A DNA stretch of 64,000 nucleotides from Halomonas sp. (GTDB lineage Bacteria > Pseudomonadota > Gammaproteobacteria > Pseudomonadales > Halomonadaceae): NCBI RefSeq assembly GCF_017515565.1, contig NZ_JAFWFN010000083.1:1-64000 (forward strand). Direction: 5' to 3'. Below, one piece after another: positions 8,701 through 25,755 of this stretch. The position numbers and the translations under genes were made by a program. Every line of letters begins with the position of its first letter. The first letter of the stretch is position 1. The notes under the pieces were generated by a model. That model searched no databases and was not told where the DNA came from. It was given only the letters and a program-made list of their open reading frames with translations.

Positions 8701-9439
8701 CCCAGGGCCGGGTACCTTCTTGCACGGGCTGTTGGAATGGGCAGGCAGACAAGGCTTTGAGACCGTCGCCAGCGACCGCGGCGCGCTCGACGACATGCTG
8801 TGGCGGCGAGTGCAGCTACGCGGCTGGCAAGCATGGCAAGAACCGCTGGCAGGCTGGCTTTCAGCGCTACTCACCACACCGTTACCGCTGGCCGCGCCGA
8901 CCCAACAAAGCGTCGCGCTGACCGACCTTGCCAGCTACCAAGTGGAGCTAGAGTTCTGGTTCGCCGCCAAACGGGTGAGCACCCAGGCAATTGATGCCCT
9001 GGTAAGCAAGCACTTACTGCCAGGAGTTGAGCGCCCCGCGCTGGATGCCGACACCCTTAACGGCATGCTTAAAGGCTTTATTGATCTGGCGTTTGAGCAT
9101 CAAGGGCGCTTTTACGTGCTGGACTGGAAATCGAACTACTTAGGGCCGAATGACAGTGCCTACGAACCCGACACCCTGCGCCACGCGCTGCTGGCCAAGC
9201 GCTACGACCTCCAGGCCGCGCTTTACCTGCTGGCCATGCATCGGCTGCTCAAAGCGCGCCTGCCCGACTACGACCCGCACCAGCACCTGGGCGGCTCAAT
9301 GACGGTATTTCTGCGCGGCAGCCGTAGCCCAGGGCGCGGGGTATTTTCCGAGCCCGCCCCGGTTGAACTGATCGAAGCACTGGATAGCCTGTTTGCAGGC
9401 GCATCGTTTTCAAGCCCCGCACAGGAAGCGACGGTATGA
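5732..9439 (+). CDS. recB: Exodeoxyribonuclease V subunit RecB (helicase-nuclease)
   Basis: RecB supplies the 3'-5' SF1 helicase motor and the only nuclease site of RecBCD, and loads RecA after Chi. The 1235-residue product has Walker A ASAGTGKT near residues 25-32, helicase motif II LIDEFQDTDPIQ near 395, and KVVTIHKSKGLEYPLVFLPF and LYVALTRARH in the C-terminal motor part. Near residues 1110-1135 it shows the nuclease core GFIDLAFEHQGRFYVLDWKS with the catalytic D and K in the expected spacing. The gene overlaps recC and recD by 4 nt each. All key motifs are intact, so the complex should be active. Confidence 0.96.
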   Translation: MSQNATPMPLNPLTLPLHGSRLIEASAGTGKTFTIALLYVRLVLGGQHSEDDSAFVRPLTPPEILVVTFTNAATQELRERIRHRLVEAAAVFRHQGEDSLLLDLRSQYPEATWPACARRLELAAEWMDEAAVSTIHSWCYRMLREHAFDSGSLFSLNLENDQRELEQEVVRDYWRTFYYPLDADALGSITCYWKSPDQLHEDVRKLLHESEALGSQRPAPDATLSAAEAERSATLGKLKAPWPAWLDELVPALEDAAKRKAFKGQSFNAKSRANWLGALREWCESDLERPALTPAAWKRLTPDGMAEIWKEGAPPCPAAWEALAEMPTALNALPEPRNDLLIHAVQWCKVRMEREQERRAEMGPNDLLTHLDRALQGPNKEALAAQILRQFPVALIDEFQDTDPIQYRIFNAVYEVANPRRDAAMLLIGDPKQAIYAFRGADIFTYLQARQDTAGRHVTLGTNFRSSRAMVEAVNHCFHYADQHPAGAFLFREDGGKNPLPFLSVAAKGRDEQLVHKGQPLPAMTLWPLASDEPLSKTAYQTEMAECCASYMVELLAAGQGGDKGGKSGFQKGDDFTPLTPSDMAVLVNGLQEARAIRSALASRGVKSVYLSDHDKVFSSPMAKQVERWLRACAEPLASSRQAEAHLRAALATPVLGLSLADLDHLQQNELAWEARVEQFSHYHRLWQRQGVLPLVRRMMVDFDIPARLLGAFEEGERLLTDLLHLGELLQQASAELDGEHALIRFLYEAIADPESHGDSHKLRLESDADLVKVVTIHKSKGLEYPLVFLPFIANHRPVNDKDIPLRWHDAQGNLQLSLSADEETRTTADRERLGEDLRKLYVALTRARHATWLGLAPLDGLENSALGYLISGGKTLAPAELTTALEALAKGSKIAVKEPPAPTAQRLALPEQSATLGHARTPTRPAKEHWWIASYSALRLSGTLTAPTATPLEPTTAQEATAFEVLDEPQELSQLAQQEAFHLHKFPRGPGPGTFLHGLLEWAGRQGFETVASDRGALDDMLWRRVQLRGWQAWQEPLAGWLSALLTTPLPLAAPTQQSVALTDLASYQVELEFWFAAKRVSTQAIDALVSKHLLPGVERPALDADTLNGMLKGFIDLAFEHQGRFYVLDWKSNYLGPNDSAYEPDTLRHALLAKRYDLQAALYLLAMHRLLKARLPDYDPHQHLGGSMTVFLRGSRSPGRGVFSEPAPVELIEALDSLFAGASFSSPAQEATV

Positions 9440-11709
9440 GTAAGCCCAAAGACACCCACACCTTCGACCTGTTTGGCGATGCCGTTGAGGCACAGGATGC
9501 CCAGCCTTCAATGGCCCCCGCGCCAGTAAGCGCTCACCCTGCGCTTAGCGATACCACTGAGCTGTTGGCCCTATGCGAGCGCTGGGTAGCAAGAGGCTGG
9601 CTGCGCGATTTAGACCGCGCCCTGGTGCGTTTTCTAGCCGCAGAAGCACCGGATGCCCCCGCACTGCTGCTGATGGCCGCCGCGCTGGCCAGCCACCAGC
9701 TTGGCCGAGGCCATGTGTGTCTGGATTTAAACGCCACGCTTAAAGCACCCGATTTCGCCCTTTCGCTACCACCAGAAGGGGATGATTTAACCGACCCGCC
9801 ACCGCTGCCCAGCGATGTGCTGGCCACACTCACGCTAAGCGAATGGCAAGCCGCGCTGCAACACCCGTTGCTCACCAGCGAAGGCCCCGGCAACACACCG
9901 CTGGTGGTAGTGACGACTCACTCAGGTTCAAGTGAAAAGACAGACACGCGGCTCTACCTACGCCGCTACTGGCAATACGAACAAACCCTGCATCAGCAAA
10001 TCGCCACGCGTGTGGAAGCCACCGATCACGCCAGCCACCTTGGGTTACTGCCCCAAGCCCTGAATATTCTGTTTGAAAACCGTGCTTTTGAAACGTCTGC
10101 CACCCCGGACTGGCAAAAAACCGCCTGCGCCCTGGCCGCCCGCAGCCGCTTCGGCATTATTACCGGCGGCCCCGGCACCGGCAAAACCACCACCGTGGTG
10201 CGCCTGCTCGCCCTACTGCAAACGCTGCAACTGGCCAACGCCCCCAGCCAACCGCTGCGCATTCGCCTAGCCGCCCCCACCGGCAAAGCCGCCGCGCGCC
10301 TGAATGAATCCATCACTGGGCAGGTGAATGATTTACCGCTCGTTCAGCTGGCAACGTTATTAAGTGAGCACTCACCTTCTGCTGCACCCAGCGAGATAGC
10401 CATTCCCACTGAAGTCACGACACTCCATAGGCTGCTGGGCGCAAGACCGGATACCCGCCACTTCCGCCACAGCGCCGCCAACCCGCTAGCGCTAGATGTA
10501 CTGGTCATCGACGAAGCGTCCATGGTGGATATCGAAATGATGGCCGCCGTGCTGCGCGCCTTGCCCGCCAACGCCCAATGCGTACTGCTGGGGGACAAAG
10601 ACCAGCTAGCATCGGTAGAAGCCGGCTCGGTACTCGGTGACCTATGCCGCCGCGCCGAAGCCGCCCACTACACCCCAGAAACCGCCCAGTGGCTGGAACA
10701 CGCCACCGGCCGACCGCTGCCAGCAGAGTACCTAGATACCCAAGGCCAACCGCTGGACCAAGCCATTACCATGCTGCGGGTTAGCCACCGCTTCAATGAA
10801 CACAGCGGCATCGGTCAGTTGGCCCAGGCGATTAACCAGCCCAGCCACGCCCAAAGTGATCGGGAAAAACAGCAGGCCGTTAGCGCCGTGCTGCGCCACG
10901 GCTACCCAGACCTGCACCACTTAACGCTTGCTGAGGACATCGCGCTGGATAAGTTGGTAATTCACGGCAGCGCGGATAAATTTCTGAATGGTGGTAAAGG
11001 CCGCACCAACCACAAAAATGAGCCCATCGCCCCGCCCACCGGCTACCGCCATTACCTAAAAGTGCTGGCCGCACAGCGCCCGCATGGGGAATCGTTTGAG
11101 GAAAACGCAGCAGCTTATAACGCCTGGGCCAGCGAGGTGCTCAGCGCCTACAGCCACTTTCAACTGCTATGTGCGCTACGCAAAGGCCCCTGGGGGGTAG
11201 AAGGCTTAAACCTGCATATCGCCAAAACACTTCGTAGTGAAAAGCTGCTATTTGGCAGTGACTACACATTGGAAAAAGGCTGGTATGAAGGCCGCCCGGT
11301 GCTGGTGACCCAAAACGACTACGGCCTAAAACTGATGAACGGCGATATCGGCATAACGCTGGCCGTGCCTGATCCACGCAACCCGCAACAAAAGCTGTTG
11401 AGAGTGGCCTTTCCTTCATCAAGTGCCACGAGCGATGCCGATAAACCCATCCGCTGGGTGCTGCCCTCCCGCCTGCACGCGGTGGAAACCGTGTTTGCGA
11501 TGACGGTACACAAATCCCAAGGCTCGGAGTTCTTACACACCGCCCTACTGCTACCGCCTACCATCAACCCGATTCTCACCCGCGAGCTGGTCTACACCGG
11601 CATCACCCGCGCCCGCGCTTGGCTCACACTGGTGGAAGCCAAGCGCGGGGTGTTGAATGAGGCGGTTACTAGGGAGGTTATGCGGGTTAGTGGGATGGGG
11701 AAGTTGTAG
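9436..11709 (+). CDS. recD: Exodeoxyribonuclease V subunit RecD (5'-3' helicase)
   Basis: RecD is the fast 5'-3' SF1B helicase of RecBCD. The 757-residue product has Walker A TGGPGTGKTTT near residues 243-253, motif II VLVIDEASMVD near 355, and the C-terminal motif VFAMTVHKSQGSEF followed by LVYTGITRAR. It is longer than E. coli RecD (608), with extra sequence around residues 430-560 before the motif LLCALRKGPWGVEGLN. The last 205 nt (11505-11709) recur in diverged form at 18271-18472, beyond the lasso cluster, which shows that DNA was inserted at this gene's 3' end. The present 3' end may therefore be native or may have arrived with the insert. Confidence 0.95.
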   Translation: MSKPKDTHTFDLFGDAVEAQDAQPSMAPAPVSAHPALSDTTELLALCERWVARGWLRDLDRALVRFLAAEAPDAPALLLMAAALASHQLGRGHVCLDLNATLKAPDFALSLPPEGDDLTDPPPLPSDVLATLTLSEWQAALQHPLLTSEGPGNTPLVVVTTHSGSSEKTDTRLYLRRYWQYEQTLHQQIATRVEATDHASHLGLLPQALNILFENRAFETSATPDWQKTACALAARSRFGIITGGPGTGKTTTVVRLLALLQTLQLANAPSQPLRIRLAAPTGKAAARLNESITGQVNDLPLVQLATLLSEHSPSAAPSEIAIPTEVTTLHRLLGARPDTRHFRHSAANPLALDVLVIDEASMVDIEMMAAVLRALPANAQCVLLGDKDQLASVEAGSVLGDLCRRAEAAHYTPETAQWLEHATGRPLPAEYLDTQGQPLDQAITMLRVSHRFNEHSGIGQLAQAINQPSHAQSDREKQQAVSAVLRHGYPDLHHLTLAEDIALDKLVIHGSADKFLNGGKGRTNHKNEPIAPPTGYRHYLKVLAAQRPHGESFEENAAAYNAWASEVLSAYSHFQLLCALRKGPWGVEGLNLHIAKTLRSEKLLFGSDYTLEKGWYEGRPVLVTQNDYGLKLMNGDIGITLAVPDPRNPQQKLLRVAFPSSSATSDADKPIRWVLPSRLHAVETVFAMTVHKSQGSEFLHTALLLPPTINPILTRELVYTGITRARAWLTLVEAKRGVLNEAVTREVMRVSGMGKL

Positions 11710-11803
11710 GGATCAGTTCCTCATCTGTTCTGGGTGATGGTTAGCCGAAATCCAACAGACAGGGAGTATTTTTGAGACGAGGACTACGAATCCGCATCTT
11801 AAT

Positions 11804-12526
11804 TCAAATCAGGCCCTGATGTGCAGCAGCGGCTATGGCCTGCGCCCGATTGGTTACATCTAATTTCCGGTAGATATTGCTCAGGTGAAACTTCACAGTC
11901 CCCTCAGACAGGCTGAGAATTATTCCAGTTTCCCATACCGTTTTACCTTCACTTACCCACTTTAACACTTCTGATTCACGCACACTCAGCGGCTGCATAA
12001 GCTTATGCTGTTTTATACAACTGGTTGCTGTATGCAACGCTGGCATGACGTTACTAAGGGCCCATTGAGCTGCTGGGTGTAGTCCGTTGCTATCGACGCA
12101 AATAGAACAGATCGTGATTACGTCGGAGTGCTCTTGCACAAAACTACACGCAACCCCTGCGTTCAAGCCATAATCAGCGGCTTTTTCAAAGAACGTAGGC
12201 GGGCAGTAGCTTCCAAAGTGTGTATAAGCGTCTTCCCAGGAGTAAATATCGGAGGCTAAAGATGCATAACGTATAACCGGGTCGACCCTACCAAAATCTT
12301 CTGCCAAGTAAGTTTGTATCCATTTCGGAGGGTAGTCATGGCTAACAAGGTGCCTGATTGAGGAAGAGGATGGATGTTTAATCTGACACAGAATGATGCC
12401 CTCGCAACAGCTAAGATCACGAAGCCAGTCCAACGTGTCTGAGACACCTCGTTCTGGCTGTGAAAGGCAGCTTTTCATGTGGTCAATAAGGCCGAAAAGA
12501 GTCGCTTGATCCAAGTCATCGGACAT
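11804..12526 (-). CDS. LuxR-family acyl-homoserine-lactone receptor and regulator
   Basis: The 240-residue protein has the two domains of AHL-responsive LuxR regulators. The N-terminal autoinducer-binding domain carries the ligand-pocket residues in register with TraR/LasR: W69, Y73, D82, W97 and G124. The C-terminal HTH (about 172-235) carries LSVRESEVLKW and EGTVKFHLSNIYRKL. It diverges from a LuxI-type synthase and, beyond it, the lasso genes, so it is the obvious candidate to control both. The ligand cannot be read from sequence. The ATG at 12524-12526 is used. Confidence 0.93.
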   Translation of the reverse strand: MSDDLDQATLFGLIDHMKSCLSQPERGVSDTLDWLRDLSCCEGIILCQIKHPSSSSIRHLVSHDYPPKWIQTYLAEDFGRVDPVIRYASLASDIYSWEDAYTHFGSYCPPTFFEKAADYGLNAGVACSFVQEHSDVITICSICVDSNGLHPAAQWALSNVMPALHTATSCIKQHKLMQPLSVRESEVLKWVSEGKTVWETGIILSLSEGTVKFHLSNIYRKLDVTNRAQAIAAAAHQGLI

Positions 12527-12847
12527 ATCGTTTTCAACTCCCTCTGCTATTCGAGAGCTCGCCCCATTCTAGCGTCTCTACGGATATTACTAGTATTACA
12601 CGCCCAAGGTCGCGCGATATAACCCGCTGCTTGGGGGAAATAACTAAGTGTAGTAATTGGATGGGGCCTCTCATGTCATGTAGTGATTAGCTAAGTGGAA
12701 TGCTTCTCACCTAGCATTTTACCCTTCTAAAAACTAACTTATAGTTAACTCCAGCTGTTTCTACCCTATCCATTCGGCTAGTAGTCAGTGCTGTATATAA
12801 AGGCAATGCTAATACAGAAAATGACGGCTAATGATACTGGTATACTC
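12527..12847. promoter_or_regulatory. luxR-luxI divergent control region
   Basis: This 321-nt AT-rich spacer must hold both promoters. Two weak candidate sites stand out. One is a near-palindrome TATTACTAGTATTA at 12585-12598, close to the luxR start. The other is a CT-N12-AG match at 12666-12685 with poor dyad symmetry. No further gene is apparent. If luxI uses one of the upstream in-frame starts (GTG 12788, ATG 12806 or 12821), the spacer is shorter. Confidence 0.4.
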
Positions 12848-13576
12848 ATGAGTGCAAAAAAAGTGCAACCATCTTTCTCAGGTCTTGATGATGCAAAGGC
12901 ACTCATACTGGATCGCAATGAGTACCGCCTTGAATATCTATTGTGCGACTGCCGTTTAACCCAAGCATACGAGCTCAGAGCCAAGGTCTTTTGCAGTGAG
13001 CTTGGGTGGGTAGGCCACCAAGGACAATTGCGAGAAGTCGATGCTTTCGATGGTAGCGTTTGGCACTTAGGTGTCCTGGCTCAGGGGAAACTAGCAGCGT
13101 ATTTAAGAGTTCACCCTTATTGGGCTCCTTGGATGATCGATAGTGTTTTTTCAGACATCGCACCAACAGGTTGCTCACTACGACGGCCTGGTGTCTGTGA
13201 GGTATCACGCCTAGCAGTAGCCCCAGCATTCCGTCGCTTCGCTTTTTCAGATGATCAAACCGCAACTGGTTTGATCTTAAAGCTGCTTTACAATTTTTGT
13301 TTTCAAAACAAAATCGATAAGGTGTACATGATCGGTACTAACCGTTTACTGCGTGCCTTAAGGCTGCACGGTCTCCCCTGCCATCCTAGTCCAGGGGATC
13401 ATCATCAGCCTGATCGGGATGCACCGATTTTTGCTACCCTCGACTGGGATGAGTTTCGATCCAGCAACGCCCCTCTTATTACTAAACGACGCCCTGCGTT
13501 TTTGGCGCAAGCCAAGCTCGTACATAAAGGAAAGCTGGGGCAAGCATCTCAATGCCTCTGCAAAGTACATCTGTAA
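12848..13576 (+). CDS. LuxI-family acyl-homoserine-lactone synthase
   Basis: LuxI enzymes join S-adenosylmethionine and an acyl-ACP to make AHL signals. All residues conserved in the family are present in order (numbering from this start): R44, F48, W54 in ELRAKVFCSELGW; E63, D65, D68 in REVDAFD; R87 in AYLRVHP; F101; and E118, R121 in CEVSRLAV. The C-terminal part is longer than usual, about 242 residues in total against about 200. No start has a clear ribosome site: ATG 12848, 12821, 12806 and GTG 12788 are all in frame. It sits head to head with luxR and 312 nt before the lasso precursor. A separate, less canonical family member lies at 60631-61449. Confidence 0.9.
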   Translation: MSAKKVQPSFSGLDDAKALILDRNEYRLEYLLCDCRLTQAYELRAKVFCSELGWVGHQGQLREVDAFDGSVWHLGVLAQGKLAAYLRVHPYWAPWMIDSVFSDIAPTGCSLRRPGVCEVSRLAVAPAFRRFAFSDDQTATGLILKLLYNFCFQNKIDKVYMIGTNRLLRALRLHGLPCHPSPGDHHQPDRDAPIFATLDWDEFRSSNAPLITKRRPAFLAQAKLVHKGKLGQASQCLCKVHL

Positions 13577-13792
13577 CCCCACCTTCTGTTCTTGACTGCC
13601 TTATTCTTATTTATGAGCGCCGTAGGATAAGAGCGGATCATGTATGAACTGACCTCAATTTTCTCTTCTGACTAGTTCTTTTCTCCATGGCTGATCCCGA
13701 TAACTGTCTGTTAGCTGTCGACCTAGCAAGTGGCTGACACGTAATCGCAAAAAATGGCAAGTGTTGCCCGAACGAGGGAGAAACCAGCATAT

Positions 13793-13812
13793 GACTATCC
13801 AGATGGACAGGT
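13793..13812 (+). promoter_or_regulatory. Candidate lux box and promoter of the lasso operon
   Basis: The sequence GACTATCCAG at 13793-13802 followed by ATGGACAGGT fits the LuxR-type pattern NNCT-N12-AGNN. Its half-sites CTATCC and GGACAG match in five of six dyad positions. The centre is near 13802.5. A plausible -10 element GATAAC lies at 13832-13837, which would put the transcription start near 13844 and the box at about -42, the usual position for LuxR activation. The precursor ATG follows at 13889. The rest of the 13577-13888 gap shows no convincing gene. Confidence 0.5.
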
Positions 13813-13888
13813 GCGCAGTCTTACCATCCCCGATAACCTCAAGAGTGCCGACGTCGGAACTGAAACAAAGCCATAAAAGGAGAAAGAC

Positions 13889-14038
13889 ATGTTGAAGAAA
13901 AAAGTCCTGAAGAAGCACCTATCCAACGTGCTAAATCAAAAGGCATCTACCTTCAAAGCGAGCAGTGCAACTCGAGGGGGAGGCGGCGGTGCCATTATTG
14001 AGGGTTCCTATGCTGTTTGGCGGGATCCGTGGACCTAA
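13889..14038 (+). CDS. Lasso peptide precursor
   Basis: This 49-residue gene has a strong ribosome site (AAAAGGAGA, spacing about 6) and directly precedes lasso B, D and C genes. It encodes a basic leader (MLKKKVLKKHLSNVLNQK to SSATR) and a C-terminal core. The near-invariant Thr at leader position -2 is T28, which puts cleavage after R29 and makes G30 the first core residue. Core: ring GGGGGAIIE, tail GSYAVWRDPWT. E9 can form the macrolactam with the G1 amine, giving a nine-residue ring as in capistruin-type peptides and an 11-residue tail with bulky Y12, W15, R16 and W19 as possible plugs. The calculated monoisotopic mass of the cyclised core is about 2029.96 Da. If processing were one residue later, an eight-residue ring resembling citrocin or klebsidin (GGxGxIIE) would result. 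Confidence 0.88.
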   Translation: MLKKKVLKKHLSNVLNQKASTFKASSATRGGGGGAIIEGSYAVWRDPWT

Positions 14039-14052
14039 GGCCTAGTGCCTAA

Positions 14053-14083
14053 AAGGCATGTCGCACACTGTGCGACATGCCTT
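14053..14083 (+). terminator. Strong hairpin between the precursor and lasso B gene
   Basis: An almost perfect palindrome (arm AAGGCATGTCGCA, 14053-14065, pairing with 14071-14083) lies 14 nt past the precursor stop. It lacks a long U tail, so it is more likely a partial terminator or a 3' stabiliser of the short precursor transcript than a full stop. Such A/B or A/C intergenic hairpins are known in other proteobacterial lasso operons, where they favour precursor over enzyme expression. Confidence 0.75.
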
Positions 14084-14150
14084 ATTGCCAGTTCTATGTT
14101 CAGCCTTTTACATGCAGTCATCCCTTCCCAGCGAATCACGGAGCCATGAA

Positions 14151-14849
14151 ATGGAGGTTTATCCCAAGTTTAACCAATATGTTCACTATGTCCTTCTTAA
14201 CGGTGAATTCATCATTCTTGATGAGCAGGAAGACCGTTATGTCATCTTAGAAGCACCGACCAGCTTAGAACTTGAGATGGCGCTAATGGAGGGAAATGAA
14301 CAATCAGCGCTTGTTCAAGAGCTGCTTAATGCAGGAATACTCGAACTTTCCAGTCAGCGGCAGTCGATCCGGAGAGTGACTGTCCAGGAACACGGGATTG
14401 GCGACTACGAGTGGCGGTTTGCTCGCCAATTCCACCAGACTGCCTCAGTTAAGTGGATGAGTTTTCGCGCGCTTCAAACTTTGCTTTGGATAAAGACTTT
14501 GTTATCGACGCGAGGATTTCACTCTGCAATGAATAGTCTCCGTGCTCTAAAAGCTACACAAGCGCATTCAATACACTTACCGATTGAATCCAGTGAACAC
14601 AATCGAATTTGCGCATGCGCTGCTACCGCTATAGCAGAGGCAGCACTTTGGATGCCTTATCGTGTGGAATGCCTGGAGTATTCTATGTCGCTATCGCGAC
14701 TACTACTTTCACTAGGGGTCTGCCCGACGTTCCGCATAGGAGTTCAGCGATACGACTTTTTATCGCACGCTTGGGTTGAGGTTGGGGGAAAAGTGCTAGG
14801 CGATGACCCGAACTTGCCCGATAGAATGTGTTCGATTGTTGAAATTTAG
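14151..14849 (+). CDS. Lasso peptide B protein (leader recognition and leader peptidase)
   Basis: The B protein binds the precursor leader and cuts it off so the cyclase can close the ring. The 232-residue product is the fused proteobacterial form: an N-terminal RRE-like part (about 1-75, with FIILDEQEDRYVIL), then a transglutaminase-like cysteine protease domain with C174 (VECLEYSMSLSRLLL), H206 (SHAWVEV) and D218 (GDDPNL) as the catalytic triad. The start at 14151 follows GGAG by 7 nt; the frame remains open upstream to 14058, but that stretch is the hairpin. It precedes the exporter gene by 16 nt. Confidence 0.93.
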   Translation: MEVYPKFNQYVHYVLLNGEFIILDEQEDRYVILEAPTSLELEMALMEGNEQSALVQELLNAGILELSSQRQSIRRVTVQEHGIGDYEWRFARQFHQTASVKWMSFRALQTLLWIKTLLSTRGFHSAMNSLRALKATQAHSIHLPIESSEHNRICACAATAIAEAALWMPYRVECLEYSMSLSRLLLSLGVCPTFRIGVQRYDFLSHAWVEVGGKVLGDDPNLPDRMCSIVEI

Positions 14850-14865
14850 ACCATTGAGCCCTGCT

Positions 14866-16581
14866 ATGAAAGACACGTATTCCCCATCCTATGTAACCAC
14901 CTACCGGCGCGGACTTGAGCTAATCCAGTCTCGCTATCCGCGATTTTTTACCCACCTCATACTAGTGCTGCTGCTCATGATCGGCATAGCGGCGGTGGGC
15001 GCATCGGTTCCCTATTTACTTCGGCAGACGACCAATCTCTTAGTGGAAGATTCGGGTGAGGCGGCAGTGGGTATGATCTACGTCTTCGCGACTGCTTATG
15101 CCGTCGGCTGGACGTTGAGCAACATGATGGAGTGGGGCAAGAATCTCGCTAGTGCATACGTGATGGCTAGATGCGATGCGGCCGTGTACTCGAGTATTGT
15201 GCGGCGTTTGCTACGGTTACCTTACCAAGCGCAGCATCAGCTTGATACGGGGGTTGTCATGGCCGACGTCAACAGGGCGATGAGCAGCTTTGGTCTGATC
15301 AACCACGCCCTATTCTGGACCATTACTCCGGTCGTCATCCAGCTTTGCTTTGTCTTTGGTATTCTCTGGCAGGTGATCAACCTCACCTTCGCGGCCGCCT
15401 TCATCCTGGCCATCGTTGTGCTCTTCATGCTGACCTACCGAATTGCCGATACGACGACCCGCATCCACAAGAGCTTCTACCAGACGCATACTCAGCTGAG
15501 TGAATTTCTTGCAGAGCGCTTACGCGCACTCTATGACATCAAGATCAACCTCGCTGCTGAACATGAAGAACGTACACTCGACCACCATCTGCGTACCTAC
15601 GTTCACACGGTATACGGCACCCATGCGAAGCTCAGCGGTTTGATGGGTGGACAAGTTCTCGCTGTAGGCCTGGTGCTGGGTGGGTTCACGCTGTATACCG
15701 TCAGCGAAACGCTACGCCAGCGCTATCAAGTCGGCGATTTCATCATGATCACGACTTATGTTGTTCAACTCACCTCCCCGTTCGTCATGATTGCGGCGGC
15801 GTTAATTGACCTCAAGAAGAACTACGTCGCCCTCGGTGACGGCCTTAGATACCTTGACCTGCCGACCGAGCTCCAGTCCGCAGCCAATATCACTCTGGAT
15901 CATCATCAGCCTATCTTCTCGCTACGCGAAGTAACCTTACGCGCCGATGACGCCACCTCCGCCATGCCGCTCAGTGTGGAAATTCAGTCTGGCAAAATGT
16001 ACGGGGTACGCGGGCCATCCGGAAGCGGAAAATCCACGCTATTAAGAACCCTTCTAGGGCTTGAGCCTCAAGCATCCGGTGAGATCCTTTTCCATGGAGT
16101 TAGTGTTAGCCAACTTTCACCTGAGGATATCCTTAGCGTAGTAAGTGTTGTCCCACAAGCACCGCTGATTTTTAGCGGTAGCGTTCGCGAGAACCTACTG
16201 TACGCGCACCCTCAGCCCGTTCCTGACCAGGAGCTGCTTGCGCTTGTCGAACTCTTGGATCTAGAGCGAATCGGCGGCGAAACGTCTGGCGCAAGCGTGC
16301 TGGATCGTGATGTCGGCGTACAGGGAAGGAATCTTTCCGGCGGGGAACAACAGCGCATCGCCATTGGCAGAGCGCTGCTGCGCGGCACACGCACCATGAT
16401 CCTTGATGAGCCCACGGCCGCGCTGGACAGTGCGCGCGAGATTCAGCTCATGCAGGCGCTAAGATCACGCGTTGAGACACTGGTAGTAGTAAGCCACCGT
16501 GAGCAGGTACTTGCGCTAGCCGATGACTGTATTGATGTCGGCCCCTACAACACGCCGTTTTTAGCAGAGCAGAGGAGTTAA
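14866..16581 (+). CDS. Lasso peptide D protein, ABC exporter
   Basis: The 571-residue half-transporter has an N-terminal six-helix membrane domain (about 1-330) and a C-terminal ATPase domain with Walker A GPSGSGKST near 382, signature LSGGEQQR near 489, Walker B MILDEP near 511 and switch histidine VVVSH near 540. In lasso clusters such proteins export the mature peptide and give the producer self-protection. The ATG at 14866 was chosen because it avoids overlap with the B gene; an in-frame ATG at 14803 would overlap it by 47 nt. The cyclase gene follows after 4 nt, so coupling is likely. Confidence 0.92.
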   Translation: MKDTYSPSYVTTYRRGLELIQSRYPRFFTHLILVLLLMIGIAAVGASVPYLLRQTTNLLVEDSGEAAVGMIYVFATAYAVGWTLSNMMEWGKNLASAYVMARCDAAVYSSIVRRLLRLPYQAQHQLDTGVVMADVNRAMSSFGLINHALFWTITPVVIQLCFVFGILWQVINLTFAAAFILAIVVLFMLTYRIADTTTRIHKSFYQTHTQLSEFLAERLRALYDIKINLAAEHEERTLDHHLRTYVHTVYGTHAKLSGLMGGQVLAVGLVLGGFTLYTVSETLRQRYQVGDFIMITTYVVQLTSPFVMIAAALIDLKKNYVALGDGLRYLDLPTELQSAANITLDHHQPIFSLREVTLRADDATSAMPLSVEIQSGKMYGVRGPSGSGKSTLLRTLLGLEPQASGEILFHGVSVSQLSPEDILSVVSVVPQAPLIFSGSVRENLLYAHPQPVPDQELLALVELLDLERIGGETSGASVLDRDVGVQGRNLSGGEQQRIAIGRALLRGTRTMILDEPTAALDSAREIQLMQALRSRVETLVVVSHREQVLALADDCIDVGPYNTPFLAEQRS

Positions 16582-16585
16582 GCTT

Positions 16586-18160
16586 ATGACGTTGAAGCAC
16601 TTAACAGATGCCCTACGTGATGATGACAATAACTCTTGTACTAACAGAATTGTGCACCAGCCTATCGGTCGTATTCCGTTGCTGATAAGTCTCGACGACA
16701 GCTCAATTAGACCATTGCAAGGGCAAACCCCGCTCAGCGGGATGGTGCCAAGGCGTAATGCTCGCGCGCCGTATATCGAAGCTAAAGGCGGCAAGATAAA
16801 GGTACGGAATCCGTTGGGTAGTTGCCGCGAGATCTATTTACGAGTTACGTCTTCAAGTGTACGGGTTGGCAGTACACTTGAGGAGGTAATTGAAAAGGGA
16901 ACTAACACGCCAGCGCTTGAAAAGGTTGTCGCGCACTTGAATAACGACACTACACTGGGTTTCTCAATTTGGAGAGATGTGCATGTTATCCCCGCTGGCA
17001 GTGTGGCTCACCTTCAGCGTGGAGAAGTACTCCACATCACCTCAGAACTAGACTCAATGCACGACATAAGCAACACCTCTGACAATCCAGCTGCGATACT
17101 TGAAGAATTGCTTCAACAAGAGGCTCTTACAGAGCGTTTCGGTGTTGCATTCTCGGGCGGTTGTGACTCAACTTCTTTGCTCTATGCAGCTGCAGCCGTA
17201 TACGGGGTAGAGCAACCTGTAGCGTGCACTTGGTACTTTCCAGGCGGTAGTGCACACGATGATGCGCAGATTGCCTCGGCTATTGCCGACGAACTCGGCG
17301 TCGAGCACTTCTCGTTAACGCTTTCGGAAGATTTGTTATTTAGTCCGATTCAAGGGCCGCTACCTGCAGCCCCTTCAACTGCACTCGCCTTCCAAGCCGT
17401 TATCTATCAGCTAGCGGAGGAGCTATCGATACGAACCAACACGCGACCTGTGACGATTCTAGATGGCCATGGTGGCGACCAGATATTCCTCGACCCGGTG
17501 CCGGTGGCATCGCTACGTAATACCTTACTCAGTCAACCTTCGGCATTTGCCCGAAAACTTAGGCATTACGCTCAATTGTACTCGGTTAGTTATATCCGAG
17601 TGTTACGAGCAATAATGAAGTCATCTCCGAATCCAATTAATAAGTTTCTCCGAGACGAAGTAATCGCTAGCTCACGCCAAGACGGCCCCTCACTCACAGT
17701 AGCGAGAAACGAGCCTATAAGGCGCGCATGGATGCAAGATGCTATCAACGAGAACAGCTATCGTGTCATCTGCGATGAACGGGCGCAGTATTTGAGGCCA
17801 TTTACTCAGGAAGAAATGCTCCGTTACGCACTTTCGTTTCCTACAGACGCTCTCTATGATAACAATTACACGCGCCTGCCTTTCCGGCAGAAAGTCGCTA
17901 AACACTATAATACGAGTGCCATTTTTCGACGTAGGAAGGGCTCGGTTACAGGGGCCTTTCAGAAAGCACTGTGGAACAATAGGGCGTATTTGGAACCGCT
18001 GGTTCTAGAGGGACAGCTCGCTCATTGGGGTTTAATAGACCGTGAAAGGTTTAGAGACGTCTACAACCAGACGGCACTTGGCTGTGGTGGTTTTGACTAC
18101 GACCTTCTTAAGCTCCTCACTACTGCTCTACTCTTAGACGCTTATCAAAGGCTTTTGTAG
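16586..18160 (+). CDS. Lasso peptide C protein, macrolactam cyclase (asparagine-synthetase-like)
   Basis: The C protein adenylates the ring Asp/Glu side chain and joins it to the core N-terminus. The 524-residue protein has the asparagine synthetase B fold: a degenerate N-terminal amidotransferase-like domain lacking the usual Cys2, and an ATP-pyrophosphatase domain with the PP-loop AFSGGCDSTSLLY near 188 and DGHGGDQIF near 292. The start follows GAGGAG by about 8 nt and lies 4 nt after the exporter stop. It is last in the order A-B-D-C, which differs from the common A-C-B-D. No isopeptidase gene follows. Confidence 0.93.
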   Translation: MTLKHLTDALRDDDNNSCTNRIVHQPIGRIPLLISLDDSSIRPLQGQTPLSGMVPRRNARAPYIEAKGGKIKVRNPLGSCREIYLRVTSSSVRVGSTLEEVIEKGTNTPALEKVVAHLNNDTTLGFSIWRDVHVIPAGSVAHLQRGEVLHITSELDSMHDISNTSDNPAAILEELLQQEALTERFGVAFSGGCDSTSLLYAAAAVYGVEQPVACTWYFPGGSAHDDAQIASAIADELGVEHFSLTLSEDLLFSPIQGPLPAAPSTALAFQAVIYQLAEELSIRTNTRPVTILDGHGGDQIFLDPVPVASLRNTLLSQPSAFARKLRHYAQLYSVSYIRVLRAIMKSSPNPINKFLRDEVIASSRQDGPSLTVARNEPIRRAWMQDAINENSYRVICDERAQYLRPFTQEEMLRYALSFPTDALYDNNYTRLPFRQKVAKHYNTSAIFRRRKGSVTGAFQKALWNNRAYLEPLVLEGQLAHWGLIDRERFRDVYNQTALGCGGFDYDLLKLLTTALLLDAYQRLL

Positions 18161-18270
18161 TTCAGGGCATTTGACTGGCAGTGCCTGCTTCCCACCAAAA
18201 CGCCAGGAAGATCACTTTTTTGCACGTAGCCGTTCCCACTATCGTTACGGATAGACCAGCAAATGGGTCT

Positions 18271-18472
18271 GGTACACAAATCCCAAGCCTCGGAGTTCCT
18301 GCACACCGCCCTACTGCTACCGCCTACGCTGAACCCTATTCTCACCCGCGAGCTGGTCTACACCGGCATCACCCGCGCCCGCGATTGGCTCACGCTGGTG
18401 GAGGCCAAACGCGGGGTGTTGAATGAGGCGGTGGTGAGGGAGGTGGTTAGGGTTAGTGGGGTTGGGAGTTGA
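18271..18472 (+). pseudogene. Second, truncated copy of the recD 3' end
   Basis: The last 67 codons of recD recur here in frame (VHKSQASEFLHTALLLPPT, then LVYTGITRAR and RGVLNEAV) with about 90% nucleotide identity by eye to 11505-11709 and a different stop codon. No start or upstream recD sequence accompanies it. It marks the right edge of the inserted lasso block. The 110 nt between the cyclase stop and this copy show no recognisable feature. Confidence 0.9.
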
Positions 18473-18510
18473 TTGAAACCGACACCAGCGGCTATGGTCG
18501 TGTCAGATTT

Positions 18511-18550
18511 CGGCCAGGAGCTGCCTTTTAGTCGTCTCTAATATAATGCC
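18511..18550 (+). repeat. Dispersed repeat copy A
   Basis: A 40-nt segment starting CGGCCAGGAGCTGCCTTTTAG and ending ATATAATGCC is shared, with changes, by three other intergenic places in this window (21007, 25715 and 39569). Here the preceding hairpin seen in the fuller copies is missing. It lies just right of the recD 3' duplication. Confidence 0.6.
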
Positions 18551-18612
18551 CGCAATAAGCGGTGCGAGGAACGAGCGCCCAGCGACCGTAGGGAGCGAAT
18601 TTAATTGTTTTG

Positions 18613-19230
18613 TTATGAATTCTCATTTTCTATCCAGACACAGAAATCGGTGATCTCTTTCAGGTCAGGAAATTCACCGTCTTTTGGCCCCCACCATCCC
18701 AAGGAGTCTCGATAGAGATAGTAAATATATTTATGGTACTTGTCGTAAAACTGAGTGAGACTGAGTTTAGATGATCTTTCATAGGCGACATGCCCACAGA
18801 CCTTGTTCCGATACTCTCGAAAGTCCTTTGCAAATTCCTCAGGCACCTTTACATCATAAAAACCTATGTCGTTTACCCAGTCAGGCGCGCGGCCATCTTT
18901 AATGGCATCACGATATTGATCCATCACGCGCTGCGCGTGATGCATGATGTAACTGTCAATTATAAGGGTTCGTTCCTCACCTTTCTTGTTCGTAAGTTTT
19001 GTGTTGCCCGAATCACGAGCATTACACCCCAAAATAAACTCGTACAAGTGATGCACGAAGCCTGAATACGCATTATAGGCTCGATAAGAAACCTCTCGGT
19101 TACGCCCTTTCATAATCATGATGGTGGCGTAATGGGTGAACCGCCGAAACTCGTCATGACACCTGAAAATTTCATGGGTCAAAGCAGTGCAGTGATCGGA
19201 ATCGATAATGCCGCCTACCTCAAACTTCAT
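18613..19230 (-). CDS. HEPN-motif protein, probable RNase-type accessory protein
   Basis: I do not recognise the family by name. The 205-residue product is mostly helical and contains R141-N-K-V-C-G-H147, an Rx4-6H motif with Asn after Arg as in HEPN ribonucleases, followed by an aromatic-rich helix (FYDKYHKYIYYLY). HEPN proteins are common in toxin-antitoxin, abortive-infection and other defence systems. The start at 19230 follows AGGGG; an in-frame Met six codons upstream is less likely. The gene is AT-richer than the core and lies 71 nt downstream of the nuclease-like gene on the same strand, so the two may work together. Function is inferred. Confidence 0.6.
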   Translation of the reverse strand: MKFEVGGIIDSDHCTALTHEIFRCHDEFRRFTHYATIMIMKGRNREVSYRAYNAYSGFVHHLYEFILGCNARDSGNTKLTNKKGEERTLIIDSYIMHHAQRVMDQYRDAIKDGRAPDWVNDIGFYDVKVPEEFAKDFREYRNKVCGHVAYERSSKLSLTQFYDKYHKYIYYLYRDSLGWWGPKDGEFPDLKEITDFCVWIENENS

Positions 19231-19301
19231 AACTACCCCTTGATGCATGACGCTGAAGGAAGCGGCCTGTCTTCTGCGTCCGTCTTCCGTGACTTGTTAA
19301 A

Positions 19302-20795
19302 TCATTTTCGACTCCGATTCTTCCTCCTAGCGTGCTTCTGTCTTTTGCTTTCCGTTTTTCGCTTATTGTCTTCAGTTTTGCCCATCAGCCGATTGCCGGG
19401 ATCTTTTTCTTCAACTGGAAATTGATAGTTTTTTTTATTTTGTTCTTTAACATTACCTTCTTTAAATAGGCCAAGTTTTTCCCGCATTTCCTGAGCTTCC
19501 GCGTAGTCATCTTCGGACCATTCGCTTGTATCAATGTAGATCATATCTTCACTGCCCCCATTAGGGCTTGGGGGATCAGTAGCTATTCCAACTACTATAC
19601 TTCTCTCTCGCTTGAGAAGCTTTGCAGACTTACAATAAGCGAGCAAAAGACTCGCTCGAAACTCCCGGTATTGCTGGTAGGACTCGAAGTATTCGGAGAT
19701 CGGCGTCACCAACCACACATACATAGTTTCAGGATTGGTGGGCGATAATAAGAGGCGAACACCCTTTTGATCTGTTTTTAGTGACTTCACTTTTTCCTGT
19801 ATGGCATCTGCAAGGATTCTTCGCCCCAACCTTGATTCGGAGGCGAATTCTCGAATTCCCATAGTAACGGAGCTAAAGTCATCAGCGTTGCTGAAATGCC
19901 AAGTATTATCTCGTGCGTGATTGCCAAAGTATTCGATCAATCTGTCAATAAAATAGGAAGAAACGTCGAGTTCCTTGCCTCTTTTGTATTGCGGTAAAGA
20001 TCTAATGCTGTCGTAGAGCCCTTCTTGCACAACGACAAAGTCGGCATCGTTAACATAAAACCCAGGATCGCGATCCTTGTTTGATTCTAACAGGTAATAA
20101 CCGAGAAGCTCTTCTTCACCTGCTGATATGCCTAAACGGCCAGATGAAACGAACGTTTCCTTACTGGAAAGGTAGGTGGTGAAGTCATGGACTGTATCAA
20201 GCTCTCGCATTAGAACATCAAGTGCAACATCATCAAGAACATGGACGAAGCCCTTATCGGGATTGACCGTCCCCCACTGGAAAGGAGTTTTCTCCATTTC
20301 CTTCCCAACTATTTTCGGGTTCAGCATTAATGAGCCGGATCCAGAAGCGTGTTCTTTAAATCTCTCTGTAGCATTCCTCGCGACCAAAATCCGATGTATC
20401 TTTATTTTACTAATTGAAGGAAATGTAAGAGGAAAAGGCTGACTACACTTTCGATCTAAAAATATTCGGTCGGCGTGTTCTCGAATAAACTTTTCGGCGC
20501 CGTAAACTTGCGGGGCTGATTTTAAGACTGCCCTTCTGACCCACCGTCCCCAATCCACGTTCAAGTCACCAGTGTCCTTAAACGCAATATCTTTATCCGA
20601 AAAGATGATGACGTGTTCTTTGAACACCACAAGAAGATCACACAGTTCTTTTCCATCACCATGCTCGGTTTTCTTTCCTTCATCTGTGTATAGATTTACG
20701 AAACACCAAGGACTTAGGAATGTATTTTTACCCAACCAAGCAAGATAGCGCTCTGATGCTGTCACTCCCTTTTCTTCTTTCTGCTCCGTACTCAT
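19302..20795 (-). CDS. Large hypothetical protein with PD-(D/E)xK-like nuclease signature
   Basis: Near the N-terminus the 497-residue product has E50, then D53 in LCDLLVVF, then IIFSDK with D67 and K68. That spacing fits an E...D...(D/E)xK restriction-endonuclease-like core. The middle is unassigned. The C-terminus is a long, highly basic tail (KRKTESKRQKHARRKNRSRK), suggesting nucleic-acid contact. Start choice is between two adjacent ATGs (20798 and 20795) behind AAGAAGGG. With the downstream HEPN-motif gene it makes a plausible two-gene defence module. No helicase or ATPase motif is present. Family name unknown to me. Confidence 0.55.
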   Translation of the reverse strand: MSTEQKEEKGVTASERYLAWLGKNTFLSPWCFVNLYTDEGKKTEHGDGKELCDLLVVFKEHVIIFSDKDIAFKDTGDLNVDWGRWVRRAVLKSAPQVYGAEKFIREHADRIFLDRKCSQPFPLTFPSISKIKIHRILVARNATERFKEHASGSGSLMLNPKIVGKEMEKTPFQWGTVNPDKGFVHVLDDVALDVLMRELDTVHDFTTYLSSKETFVSSGRLGISAGEEELLGYYLLESNKDRDPGFYVNDADFVVVQEGLYDSIRSLPQYKRGKELDVSSYFIDRLIEYFGNHARDNTWHFSNADDFSSVTMGIREFASESRLGRRILADAIQEKVKSLKTDQKGVRLLLSPTNPETMYVWLVTPISEYFESYQQYREFRASLLLAYCKSAKLLKRERSIVVGIATDPPSPNGGSEDMIYIDTSEWSEDDYAEAQEMREKLGLFKEGNVKEQNKKNYQFPVEEKDPGNRLMGKTEDNKRKTESKRQKHARRKNRSRK

Positions 20796-21006
20796 CATAT
20801 CCCTTCTTTTAACAGGTATTAGACTGACCACCTTATGATTGGATATACGCGCCACACGTTTATTCCACAAATGAAGCCTAAAAATTCAACTATAAGTTAT
20901 TAATATTTATAATTAGGCCGCACATCTAAAGTGCCGTGCCTACCGCATTCTCTAAAATGACCGCTTTGGGTCGATAGTACCTGTGGCATGCCGAGTGATC
21001 CTGCTT

Positions 21007-21044
21007 CGGCCAAGAGCGGTATTTTAGGTGATTCTGATGTAATG
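21007..21044 (+). repeat. Dispersed repeat copy D
   Basis: The segment begins CGGCCAAGAGCGGTATTTTAG and continues to CTGATGTAATG, like the copies at 18511, 25715 and 39569. Just upstream, at 20955-20977, lies TGACCGCTTTGGGTCGA; a similar short motif recurs at 21604-21622. The 308-nt gap 20799-21106 otherwise holds only the promoter of the nuclease-like gene and a GC-rich hairpin near 21054-21085. Confidence 0.55.
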
Positions 21045-21106
21045 TTTAGCGTAACCGGCCGGCTTTGGAGCGCCGGCGAAAAAGCCGATCCACGTTGACG
21101 TTTTTG

Positions 21107-21430
21107 TCAGCAGGAGATTTCTCCGTATTCTTCAGAATACATGTAGACGGTGCATCTACGCTCCAAGAGCCTGAAATCACGACCGCTACAATCTAGCTCT
21201 CCGTGCTCTCGATCGTAAAAATAAACTTCACATGCTCTCTGTACTGGCCGGAGATTCCGCCGACTACATTCGACCTCTCCGTAAGACTCATCGTACTTAA
21301 AGACTTCGCAGTAGCGGCCCACATCTCTTAGGCTAAAGCCGTAGCCTTCAATTGTCTGTGCCGCCACCGCAAAAGGCAATATGGTTGATATGACTACGAT
21401 TGCAATTGAAGTGCCTAATCTCGGCTTCAT
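21107..21430 (-). CDS. Secreted protein of three exact 26-residue Cys-hairpin repeats
   Basis: The 107-residue product has a signal peptide (MKPRLGTSIAIVVISTILPF, likely cut near AVAA-Q25). The mature part is made of three units of identical length: C41-C55, C67-C81 and C93-C107, each of form C(E/T)Vxx-Y-xxxx-GExxC, joined by 11-residue basic linkers (SRRNLRPVQRA, SGRDFRLLERR). The periodicity is exactly 26 residues and the chain ends on the last Cys. Three disulfide-closed hairpins in the periplasm or outside are likely. I do not recognise the family. The ribosome site AGGATGGA precedes the ATG. Confidence 0.7.
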   Translation of the reverse strand: MKPRLGTSIAIVVISTILPFAVAAQTIEGYGFSLRDVGRYCEVFKYDESYGEVECSRRNLRPVQRACEVYFYDREHGELDCSGRDFRLLERRCTVYMYSEEYGEISC

Positions 21431-21636
21431 ACTTCCATCCTGCTAACAGTTATTAGACGGCGCGCTCTATGATTGAATGAACGTGCTGGCATTTTACTCC
21501 AGCAAATGCAGCCCGGCGCATTCTCCCAAGCCTATGAATCTTTAGATATTAATTTACACTAGACATGTATAGCCAAAATTCGCGCTCCTGCTGCATTTCT
21601 AAAAATGTCCGCTCAGGGTCGAAAGGCGTCATTCGC

Positions 21637-22011
21637 TCAATTCCTCATAAAACGCCACTCTGCCCGCTATAGTTGCCATACCACCAATCGGTTGCTCATT
21701 GTTCCAGCAATGTCCTGACAGTTACCCAGCGAGAAAGTCACCGTATGCCCTTTAAAGGGGCAATAAGTGGTGGTTTCTTAAACGGTGAGTGAGTCCATCC
21801 GCACATCTTCACGTGGGAAGTAGTGAGGCGGCGGGTAGCCACATTCGCGGAGTTCAAGCATGTTGGTGCTTTTTATAGTTTCCACCAGCAGAGTGCCATT
21901 AACCTGCACTTACATGCGCTGCTTGGTAGAGTGAACGTTATGCGGGCATCCTGCATTGTAAATTCCCTGCGGCGTTTTTTGCTCTAATACGTCGAGACTA
22001 GCAGTAAACAT
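21637..22011 (-). pseudogene. Broken DUF427-family gene
   Basis: Read on the minus strand from the ATG at 22011, the frame gives a DUF427 domain: VQVNGTLLVETIKSTNMLEL, ECGYPPPHYFPREDVRMDSL and TTTYCPFKGHTVTFSLG. It is interrupted by three in-frame stops (TAA before VQVNG, TAA after DSLTV, TAG near the end). The C-terminal part is diverged. DUF427 proteins have no firmly established role. The gene is clearly inactive. Confidence 0.75.
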
Positions 22012-22058
22012 AAGTTAAGCCTACCTCGGGAGCTTAGTTTTTAGTCGACAACTGATTC

Positions 22059-22407
22059 TTAGTAATGAGGGTAAGTCATCACTTCCACGCTACCGCTTTT
22101 AGCATTGTGGTTAATGTGGCACAGCACTAAGCTGGGCTGCGTGCCGTTAGCCTTAACGGTTAGCTCGCCTGCTGCGTTCCAGCCGCCGCCATTGCCGCAG
22201 GTTTACCAGCCGCTTGGGGAGATCAGTGCACTAGCCAGGTAAACATCCGCTTGTTGGGCTGCGGCGATGGCTGAGTGGCTGGGGTGGGTGAAGTCGGCGC
22301 AAATGGCTAGCGCTATGCGGGAGCCGTTTACTTTCAAGTGATCCGCCAACTGCTGCACCGTTATGCCGTCGGCTAGCGCTTCCCCTTGCTGGGCGCACAG
22401 GGGACTT
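22059..22407 (-). pseudogene. Nitrilase-superfamily (carbon-nitrogen hydrolase) fragment
   Basis: The minus-strand frame reads IALAICADFTHPSHSAIAAA, then ADVYLASALISPSGW, an in-frame TAA at 22203-22205, then GGGWNAAGELTVKANG and a natural end MTYPHY-stop. This matches the C-terminal half of carbon-nitrogen hydrolases around the catalytic Cys (AICAD). The N-terminal half is missing. With the neighbouring DUF427 relic it makes a stretch of decayed genes from 21.6 to 22.4 kb. Confidence 0.7.
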
Positions 22408-22417
22408 TCACCCCCAG

Positions 22418-22460
22418 CACAACCAAGACGCCCCCGGAGTGCCGGGGGGCGTTGGTGTTG
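22418..22460 (-). terminator. GC-rich terminator hairpin
   Basis: The stem ACGCCCCCGG/CCGGGGGGCGT (about 22428-22452), flanked by further pairing AACCAA/TTGGTGTTG, lies 26 nt past the stop of the dioxygenase gene on the minus strand. It should end that transcript. Confidence 0.7.
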
Positions 22461-22485
22461 CTAGGTTCTCAATTTACCGAAAGTG

Positions 22486-25660: not shown

Positions 25661-25675
25661 AGTGGTTATAGTTTA

Positions 25676-25754: not shown

Positions 25755-25755
25755 T

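What the first reader, a model, noticed from the sequence alone, without database searches (positions are those of the whole stretch)
11804..18160. Lasso-peptide cluster carrying its own LuxI/LuxR quorum-sensing pair
A full AHL synthase and AHL receptor, each with every conserved residue of its family, lie head to head immediately before a complete precursor-B-exporter-cyclase lasso cluster, and nothing else lies in the block. This suggests a self-contained, density-controlled lasso peptide system that moves as a unit. I cannot name a characterised lasso cluster built this way.
Basis: partly seen in the sequence, partly recalled or inferred. Interest (0 to 1): 0.92.

Follow-up and report, generated by a model that had tools for sequence, protein, structure and literature searches.

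The report
Quorum-sensing-controlled lasso peptide cluster
A salt-loving bacterium carries a compact gene set that makes a knotted peptide, with its own cell-density signal, receptor and matching DNA switch sites, so the peptide is probably made only in a crowd.

Summary
In detail: luxR, luxI and a complete precursor-B-exporter-cyclase lasso cluster fill 11804-18160, with nothing else between. The control idea gains sequence support. One 16-bp lux-box-like site, CTRTCC-N4-GG-N-YAG, stands before luxI and before the precursor gene. These are the only two sites found in the window, and both are kept in all five Halomonadaceae loci (10 of 10). They resemble the published CviR site, and CviR is the receptor's best match among solved structures. 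A close luxI occurs in the same 5 of 275 family genomes as an intact lasso B gene; both lux genes are under purifying selection. In Aidingimonas the lux pair is moved, inverted and more diverged, yet both boxes remain. "Moves as a unit" is only partly supported: the block sits in a spot after recD rich in recD 3'-end copies and has no mobility gene. The pairing is not unique: 4 of 60 other genomes with a lasso B2 match (all one unnamed, sphingomonad-like family) have LuxI within 6 kb, and two papers list such hybrid clusters. Best explanation: an AHL-LuxR switch that turns on luxI and the lasso operon together. A new variant of a known kind; AHL production and DNA binding are untested.

The parts
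11804..12526 (-). luxR: AHL-receptor transcription factor, 240 aa
   Evidence: PF03472 and PF00196 over cut-off; best solved relative CviR, E 2.5e-26; orthologues 68-90% identical in 4 related loci
12766..12781 (+). lux-box-like site before luxI (CTATCCATTCGGCTAG)
   Evidence: one of 2 matches in the 64-kb window, 0.07 expected; kept in 5 of 5 loci, 59-66 bp before luxI
12848..13576 (+). luxI: AHL synthase, 242 aa (longest ORF starts at 12788)
   Evidence: PF00765 41.4 bits, cut-off 24 (long ORF); start from alignment of five orthologues; dN/dS 0.14-0.29
13795..13810 (+). lux-box-like site before the precursor gene (CTATCCAGATGGACAG)
   Evidence: kept in 5 of 5 loci, 77-78 bp before the start codon; outer six bases on each side pair perfectly in both Aidingimonas loci
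13832..13837 (+). possible -10 element (GATAAC), invariant in five loci, centre 32 bp after the box centre
   Evidence: alignment; assignment by spacing is inference and the promoter scan did not list it
13889..14038 (+). A: lasso precursor, 49 aa; leader 13889-13975, core 13976-14035, ring Gly1-Glu9 predicted
14053..14083 (+). hairpin between A and B, 14 pairs, no T run after it
   Evidence: folds in 5 of 5 loci, z -3.9 to -5.4 for stretches of 69-77 bases, -2.5 for a 101-base window stretch; one U-A pair is C-G in both Aidingimonas (by eye)
14151..14849 (+). B: leader-binding plus protease (B1-B2 fused), 232 aa (longest ORF starts at 14058 inside the hairpin)
   Evidence: NF033537 71.3 bits; conserved GGAG then ATG; the N-terminal leader-binding part is inference
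14866..16581 (+). D: ABC exporter, probable self-immunity, 571 aa (longest ORF starts at 14803)
   Evidence: PF00005, PF00664; McjD among solved relatives, E 3.8e-37
16586..18160 (+). C: lasso macrolactam cyclase (asparagine-synthetase-like), 524 aa
   Evidence: PF00733 over cut-off; NCBIfam cyclase models below their cut-offs
11505..11701 (+). 3' end of intact recD, left copy of the repeat
18271..18467 (+). partial copy of the recD 3' end, 89% identical, right of the cluster

Best explanation
LuxI makes a diffusible acyl-homoserine lactone. At high cell density it binds the neighbouring LuxR. The LuxR dimer binds the 16-bp box before luxI, which amplifies the signal, and the matching box before the precursor gene, which turns on the A-B-D-C operon. 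B cuts the leader, C closes the Gly1-Glu9 ring round the tail, and D exports the lasso peptide and protects the producer. The hairpin after A probably gives more precursor than enzyme. The product is most likely a narrow-spectrum antibacterial used in crowded settings. Shown here: gene identity, conserved residues, box sharing and conservation, linkage, co-occurrence, selection and the hairpin. Inferred: the AHL itself, LuxR binding to the boxes, activation rather than repression, threading, the hairpin's role and antibacterial action.
For: The form CTATCCNNNNGGNYAG has only two matches in 64 kb, before luxI and before A; 0.07 expected, 1 of 100 shuffles had two or more. In first-order Markov resamples of the window's two promoter regions, 0 of 20,000 had the wider form (CTRTCC...) in both. 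Comparing the two promoter regions of each locus without the pattern, at 10 of 12 arm bases, gave this pair in all five loci; no other pair recurs at the same place in both the window's list and L003's list, which were not capped. 10 of 10 sites are kept, 77-78 bp before A and 59-66 bp before luxI. The published CviR site is CTGNCCNNNNGGNCAG (PMC12114271, passages) and CviR is LuxR's best solved relative. LuxI at 65% identity or more is found in exactly the 5 of 275 family genomes that have an intact B. dN/dS is 0.11-0.29 for luxR and luxI. The lux pair is kept though moved and inverted in L004 and L005. Of the 8 other genomic matches in G000, 6 lie inside stop-to-stop frames of 110 aa or more, so luxI and A are the main candidate targets.
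Against: No AHL, transcript or binding data. LuxI is divergent (41 bits) and its predicted structure was too poor to use (mean pLDDT 43.9). The pattern was derived from the same loci that it is counted in, and it is not rare genome-wide: 10 places in G000 (12 strand hits, against 6 for the reversed control pattern), and 1, 3, 5 and 13 places in four non-carriers. Sequence before A is conserved beyond the box, so box conservation there is not specific by itself. No scanned sigma-70 promoter coincides with the A box. One other genomic site lies 137 bp before a serine hydroxymethyltransferase gene. The NCBIfam lasso-cyclase models are below cut-off for C. The sphingomonad-like loci L135-L138 do not hold this box.
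Confidence: 0.8

Rival explanations
1. The lux pair and the lasso genes are separate passengers that share a landing spot after recD; the linkage says nothing about control.
For: recD 3'-end fragments surround the spot in many genomes; L003 also holds a candidate defence gene there; the lux pair in Aidingimonas has dS 1.16-1.42 to the window against 0.46-0.74 for B, D and C, so its history differs.
Against: The same box lies in both promoters in 5 of 5 loci. The pairing also holds in L005 and L006, where no recD piece was seen in the fetched flanks. Close LuxI and intact B share the same 5 of 275 genomes.
Confidence: 0.1
2. LuxR acts as a repressor of the precursor promoter that the signal releases (EsaR-like), or it answers a foreign signal rather than the LuxI product.
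For: Box position alone does not fix the sign of control. LuxI is divergent.
Against: Box centre 32 bp upstream of the invariant GATAAC suits an activator at about -42 (inference); LuxR is closest to CviR, which activates.
Confidence: 0.1
3. LuxI is a GNAT-type acyltransferase that does not make AHL (like the PEP-CTERM-associated acyltransferases or FeeM).
For: Acetyltransf_5 also matches at 32.9 bits, over its cut-off of 22.4, and TIGR03694 weakly, far below its cut-off.
Against: PF00765 scores higher and over cut-off; the conserved AHL-synthase residues are kept in 5 of 5; an AHL-receptor gene is adjacent and a box precedes luxI.
Confidence: 0.05

Closest known systems
Microcin J25 / capistruin type lasso clusters (A, B, C, D)
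   Same: Precursor, protease, cyclase and ABC exporter with no isopeptidase or TonB receptor in the block; McjD is among D's solved relatives.
   Different: Gene order A-B-D-C. These clusters carry no LuxI/LuxR (recalled). A review calls the expression of lasso genes poorly understood and suggests, for capistruin, an indirect repressing effect of AHLs through ScmR (PMC6963729, passages).
Sphingomonad-type lasso clusters with LuxI/LuxR (L135-L138; 'lassopeptide-homoserine lactone' of Sphingomonas So64.6b; Qipengyuania pacifica and Citromicrobium JL477)
   Same: AHL synthase beside lasso B and C genes, with a LuxR gene adjacent in all four loci; listed in print as antiSMASH-type predictions (PMC9716278, PMC9318849, passages).
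   Different: luxR, luxI, PhyH-type dioxygenase, GntR regulator, A, B, C on one strand, facing a TonB receptor and an Atxe2-type isopeptidase gene (families tested in L136); different precursor type; LuxR only 18-23% identical to the window's; no CTRTCC box.
CviI/CviR of Chromobacterium
   Same: Receptor family and a 16-bp site CTGNCC-N4-GGNCAG, also found before the synthase gene of C. subtsugae (PMC12114271, passages).
   Different: Target here is a lasso operon; luxR and luxI are divergent, not convergent; left half-site here reads CTATCC.
luxR-linked biosynthetic gene clusters of Proteobacteria
   Same: 47% of the listed clusters also carry a luxI gene (PMC5872303, passages).
   Different: 'lasso' does not occur in that paper's main text; supplements not seen.

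Membership tests
LuxI-type AHL synthase | Autoind_synth domain over curated cut-off | tested here: met
   41.4 bits, cut-off 24
LuxI-type AHL synthase | Conserved residues R, F, W, E, D, D, R, E, R | tested here: met
   the residue list is recalled
LuxI-type AHL synthase | AHL-synthase fold | tested here: inconclusive
   model mean pLDDT 43.9, not searched
LuxI-type AHL synthase | Makes an acyl-homoserine lactone | not testable with these tools
   needs an assay
LuxR-type AHL receptor | Autoind_bind plus GerE domains and six ligand-site residues | tested here: met
   the residue list is recalled
Autoinducing LuxI/LuxR circuit | lux box before luxI and before the target operon | tested here: met
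   sequence only:
Autoinducing LuxI/LuxR circuit | Signal-dependent binding and activation | not testable with these tools
   needs experiments
Class II lasso peptide cluster (microcin J25 type) | Core with Gly1 and Glu/Asp at 7-9, no Cys | tested here: met
   Gly1 and Glu9 in 5 of 5, no Cys
Class II lasso peptide cluster (microcin J25 type) | Thr at -2 of the leader | tested here: met
   met in the window and in 3 of 5 loci; Ile in both Aidingimonas
Class II lasso peptide cluster (microcin J25 type) | B2 protease, asparagine-synthetase-like cyclase, ABC exporter | tested here: met
   the NCBIfam cyclase models were below cut-off, Pfam over
Class II lasso peptide cluster (microcin J25 type) | Threaded product | not testable with these tools
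   needs MS/NMR; predicted [M+H]+ 2030.97
Isopeptidase-type lasso cluster (astexin type) | Isopeptidase and TonB receptor genes in the cluster | tested here: not met
   no such gene among the six between 11709 and 18271
Integrative mobile element | Integrase, transposase or recombinase within the repeats | tested here: not met
   only the six genes lie between the recD repeats in the window

The most novel reading that the evidence does not exclude
AHL quorum sensing has been coupled to lasso-peptide production at least twice independently (Halomonadaceae and sphingomonad-like bacteria). In Halomonadaceae the module is a self-switching competition cassette that is exchanged through a recombination spot made of recD 3'-end copies, with selection holding signal, receptor, boxes and peptide genes together even after the lux pair is moved or replaced. 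Lasso peptides would then often be density-gated weapons or public goods, not rarely.
Probability: 0.3. Interest if true: 0.75.

Novelty: new variant of a known kind. Interest (0 to 1): 0.6.

Why it matters
How lasso-peptide genes are switched on is described as poorly understood (PMC6963729, PMC6784204, passages). A cluster with its own AHL synthase, receptor and matching boxes gives a direct, testable switch: adding the right AHL, or expressing luxR, should wake it. Culture-collection strains that carry it are named in the records (Aidingimonas halophila DSM 19219, Billgrantia kenyensis DSM 17331). The pairing in a second bacterial group suggests that density control of lasso peptides is a recurring theme.

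Tried and rejected
The LuxI structure model from five sequences was too poor (mean pLDDT 43.9), so no fold search was made. Rfam found no family in 9000-27000. A PDB search with C gave no hit at E 0.01. A conserved stretch before A looked like a short reading frame in the window, but stops and shifts in L003 and L004 speak against coding (by eye). A palindrome CCGACGTCGG about 40 bp before A is also present in 5 of 5 loci but in 0 of 5 luxI promoter regions, so I did not take it as the LuxR site. Plasmids: LuxI found 2 distant records, none covering 80% of the query; B found 32, all under 60% identical. Perfect linkage was considered and toned down: B. pellis (L010/G078) keeps a B stub and a long D frame, 87% identical, and the fetched stretch gave no match to precursor, C or lux genes and no box, read as decay. 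L007-L009 (Pseudomonas, Enterobacter) gave no match to the window's LuxI in the fetched stretch. G092 and G133, Halomonadaceae with a different lasso B that the search with the window's B did not reach, have no LuxI match in the genome. Exclusivity of the AHL-lasso pairing was rejected. The pattern CTRTCCNNNNGGNYAG has 10 places in the window's genome, and the reversed control pattern is no rarer in some genomes, so the pattern alone is no proof.
Full report
OBSERVATION. Between the end of recD (11709; identity checked) and a partial copy of the recD 3' end (18271-18467, 89% identical over 197 bp) lie six genes and nothing else. luxR (11804-12526, minus strand) carries Autoind_bind and GerE domains over cut-off. 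luxI carries Autoind_synth at 41.4 bits (cut-off 24). B2, ABC-transporter and asparagine-synthase domains identify B, D and C. The 49-residue precursor has no Pfam or NCBIfam hit but has an orthologue at the same place in all five loci. Alignment of relatives moves three starts: luxI to 12848, B to 14151, D to 14866. The conserved residues of AHL synthases and of AHL-binding LuxR proteins are present and kept in 5 of 5 orthologues; the lists of defining residues are recalled. The block has 50% G+C against 61% for 2061-11709 upstream.

RELATIVES. A scan of genome contigs with B gave eight loci. Four carry the whole set: L003 (Halomonas sp. HyVt-328, most of C on another contig, L139), L004 and L005 (Aidingimonas halophila, A. 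lacisalsi), L006 (Billgrantia kenyensis, with an IS21-type insertion between D and C). L003 and L006 share the window's order. In L004 and L005 the divergent lux pair sits after C and is turned round. L010 (B. pellis) keeps a B stub and D only. L007-L009 (Pseudomonas, Enterobacter) match lasso genes weakly and gave no match to the window's LuxI in the fetched stretch. Among 275 held genomes of the family (254 of good quality), the window's B finds a relative in 6, intact in 5, and LuxI at 65% identity or more is in the same 5; six other genomes hold a LuxI match of 24-32% identity. The family also holds other, more distant lasso B2 genes (G092, G133) that this search did not reach and that have no LuxI match in the genome. 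dN/dS is 0.11-0.29 for luxR and luxI and 0.07-0.29 for B, D and C; the short precursor gives unstable values, 0.15-1.25. Between the window and Aidingimonas, dS is 1.16-1.42 for the lux pair but 0.46-0.74 for B, D and C, so the two halves seem to have different histories there.

THE SWITCH SITES. In alignments of the two promoter regions a dyad scan and inspection showed the same 16-bp site before luxI (12766-12781) and before the precursor gene (13795-13810). The form CTATCCNNNNGGNYAG has two matches in the 64-kb window, these two; 0.07 expected, and 1 of 100 shuffles had two or more. The wider form CTRTCCNNNNGGNYAG matches in 17 of the 141 loci held at the time, all of them copies of these lasso or lux regions. 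Both sites are present in 5 of 5 loci, 77-78 bp before the precursor and 59-66 bp before luxI. Comparing the two promoter regions of each locus without the pattern gave this pair in all five. First-order Markov resamples of the window's two regions had the site in both in 0 of 20,000 and in either in 22. The genome has ten places with the wider form. Of the eight others, six lie in frames of 110 aa or more, one lies 137 bp before a serine hydroxymethyltransferase gene, and one lies near a contig end. The reversed control pattern has 6 strand hits in the same genome against 12. The published ideal site of CviR is CTGNCCNNNNGGNCAG (PMC12114271, passages seen), and CviR is the best solved relative of this LuxR. 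The centre of the precursor-side box is 32 bp from an invariant GATAAC, which would suit an activator, but the promoter scan did not list a promoter there. The pattern was derived from these loci, so the counts in them are not independent of it; the likeness to the CviR site is.

THE A-B HAIRPIN. A 14-pair hairpin follows A at 14053-14083. Stretches of 69-77 bases fold with z between -3.9 and -5.4 in all five loci; a longer window stretch gave -2.5. Both Aidingimonas have C-G where the others have U-A at one pair (by eye; one event). It has no T run. A partial terminator or stabiliser that gives more precursor than enzyme is likely (inference).

HOW COMMON IS THE PAIRING. Lasso B2 was found in 15 of 369 sampled genomes of the class and 48 of 398 of the phylum (three of these below the curated cut-off). 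LuxI (PF00765) was then sought in the 60 distinct genomes other than the window's (14, 46). It lies within 6 kb of B2 in 4 of 60, all in one unnamed family (f213; 4 of its 12 genomes with B2). In these four loci a LuxR gene adjoins luxI, and luxR, luxI, a dioxygenase, a GntR regulator, precursor, B and C run on one strand, with two further genes between GntR and precursor in L135; they face a TonB receptor and an isopeptidase (family matches run for L136 only; the rest by eye). They do not hold the CTRTCC box. In none of the 22 gammaproteobacterial genomes among the 60 is LuxI near B2. Gene content suggests that f213 are sphingomonads (inference). In print, two papers list such hybrids as predictions: Sphingomonas So64.6b (PMC9716278) and Qipengyuania pacifica with Citromicrobium JL477 (PMC9318849), passages seen. 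Searches of the held library for lasso peptide with LuxI/LuxR, AHL synthase, Halomonas, homoserine lactone, Sphingomonas and autoinducer, or isopeptidase gave, in the listings and the passages I opened, no characterised AHL-controlled lasso cluster and no Halomonadaceae example. Many listed papers were not opened; most subscription papers and all supplements were out of reach.

MOBILITY. Short recD 3'-end pieces occur in 10 of 10 genomes looked at in detail (these ten were picked because they carry the lasso genes or had several matches, so this is no rate). The cluster lies directly after recD with a recD piece behind it in the window. In HyVt-328 it lies 5.4 kb after recD, and a recD piece follows C by 3.5 kb on the other contig. 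A. halophila has a recD piece about 4 kb from the precursor gene, and the B. pellis remnant is 29 kb after recD. L005 and L006 showed no recD piece in the fetched flanks. Both window copies are 83-94% identical to recD ends in 31 compared loci (two of them the same gene), with no clear sign which came with the insert. The spot behaves like a recombination hotspot, but the block holds no recombinase, so how it enters is unknown.

VERDICT. The gene set is real, conserved and very probably a single circuit in which AHL-bound LuxR raises luxI and the lasso operon together. AHL-gated gene clusters and lasso clusters are both known; their union is uncommon, appears in two unrelated settings, and here comes with candidate switch sites that make it testable.

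Noticed in passing
window 18271-18467; L139:4981-5394; L004:5610-6013; G078:C3:600838-601122: Partial copies of the recD 3' end recur after recD in Halomonadaceae genomes, like a recombination hotspot or graveyard of insertions; how it works is unknown.
   Followed up: partly
L003:2476-3492: Two pieces of a candidate anti-phage defence protein (PADLOC PDC-S21) lie directly after recD in HyVt-328, so the spot also takes defence genes.
   Followed up: partly
L135-L138: Sphingomonad-like lasso clusters with luxR-luxI, a PhyH-type dioxygenase and a GntR regulator in one run; two of the four genomes have a second LuxR gene close by.
   Followed up: partly
window 18613-20870: Two low-G+C genes with no Pfam or PADLOC match right after the recD copy.
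   Followed up: partly
window 60631-61449: A second GNAT-type protein (Acetyltransf_5 over cut-off) with weak similarity to AHL synthases and FeeM, below those cut-offs.
   Followed up: partly
L003:6433-7665 and L006:1660-2937: A DUF4236 gene stands beside luxR in two of the five loci and is absent from the window's block.
   Followed up: partly
L006:7861-9878: An IS21-type transposase/IstB pair splits C from A-B-D in Billgrantia kenyensis.
   Followed up: partly
L139:2803-3531: HyVt-328 has a second AHL-receptor-type LuxR gene just after its lasso cluster.
   Followed up: no
L010:10058-12077: Billgrantia pellis holds a decayed remnant: B stub and D; no match to precursor, C, lux genes or box in the fetched stretch.
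   Followed up: partly
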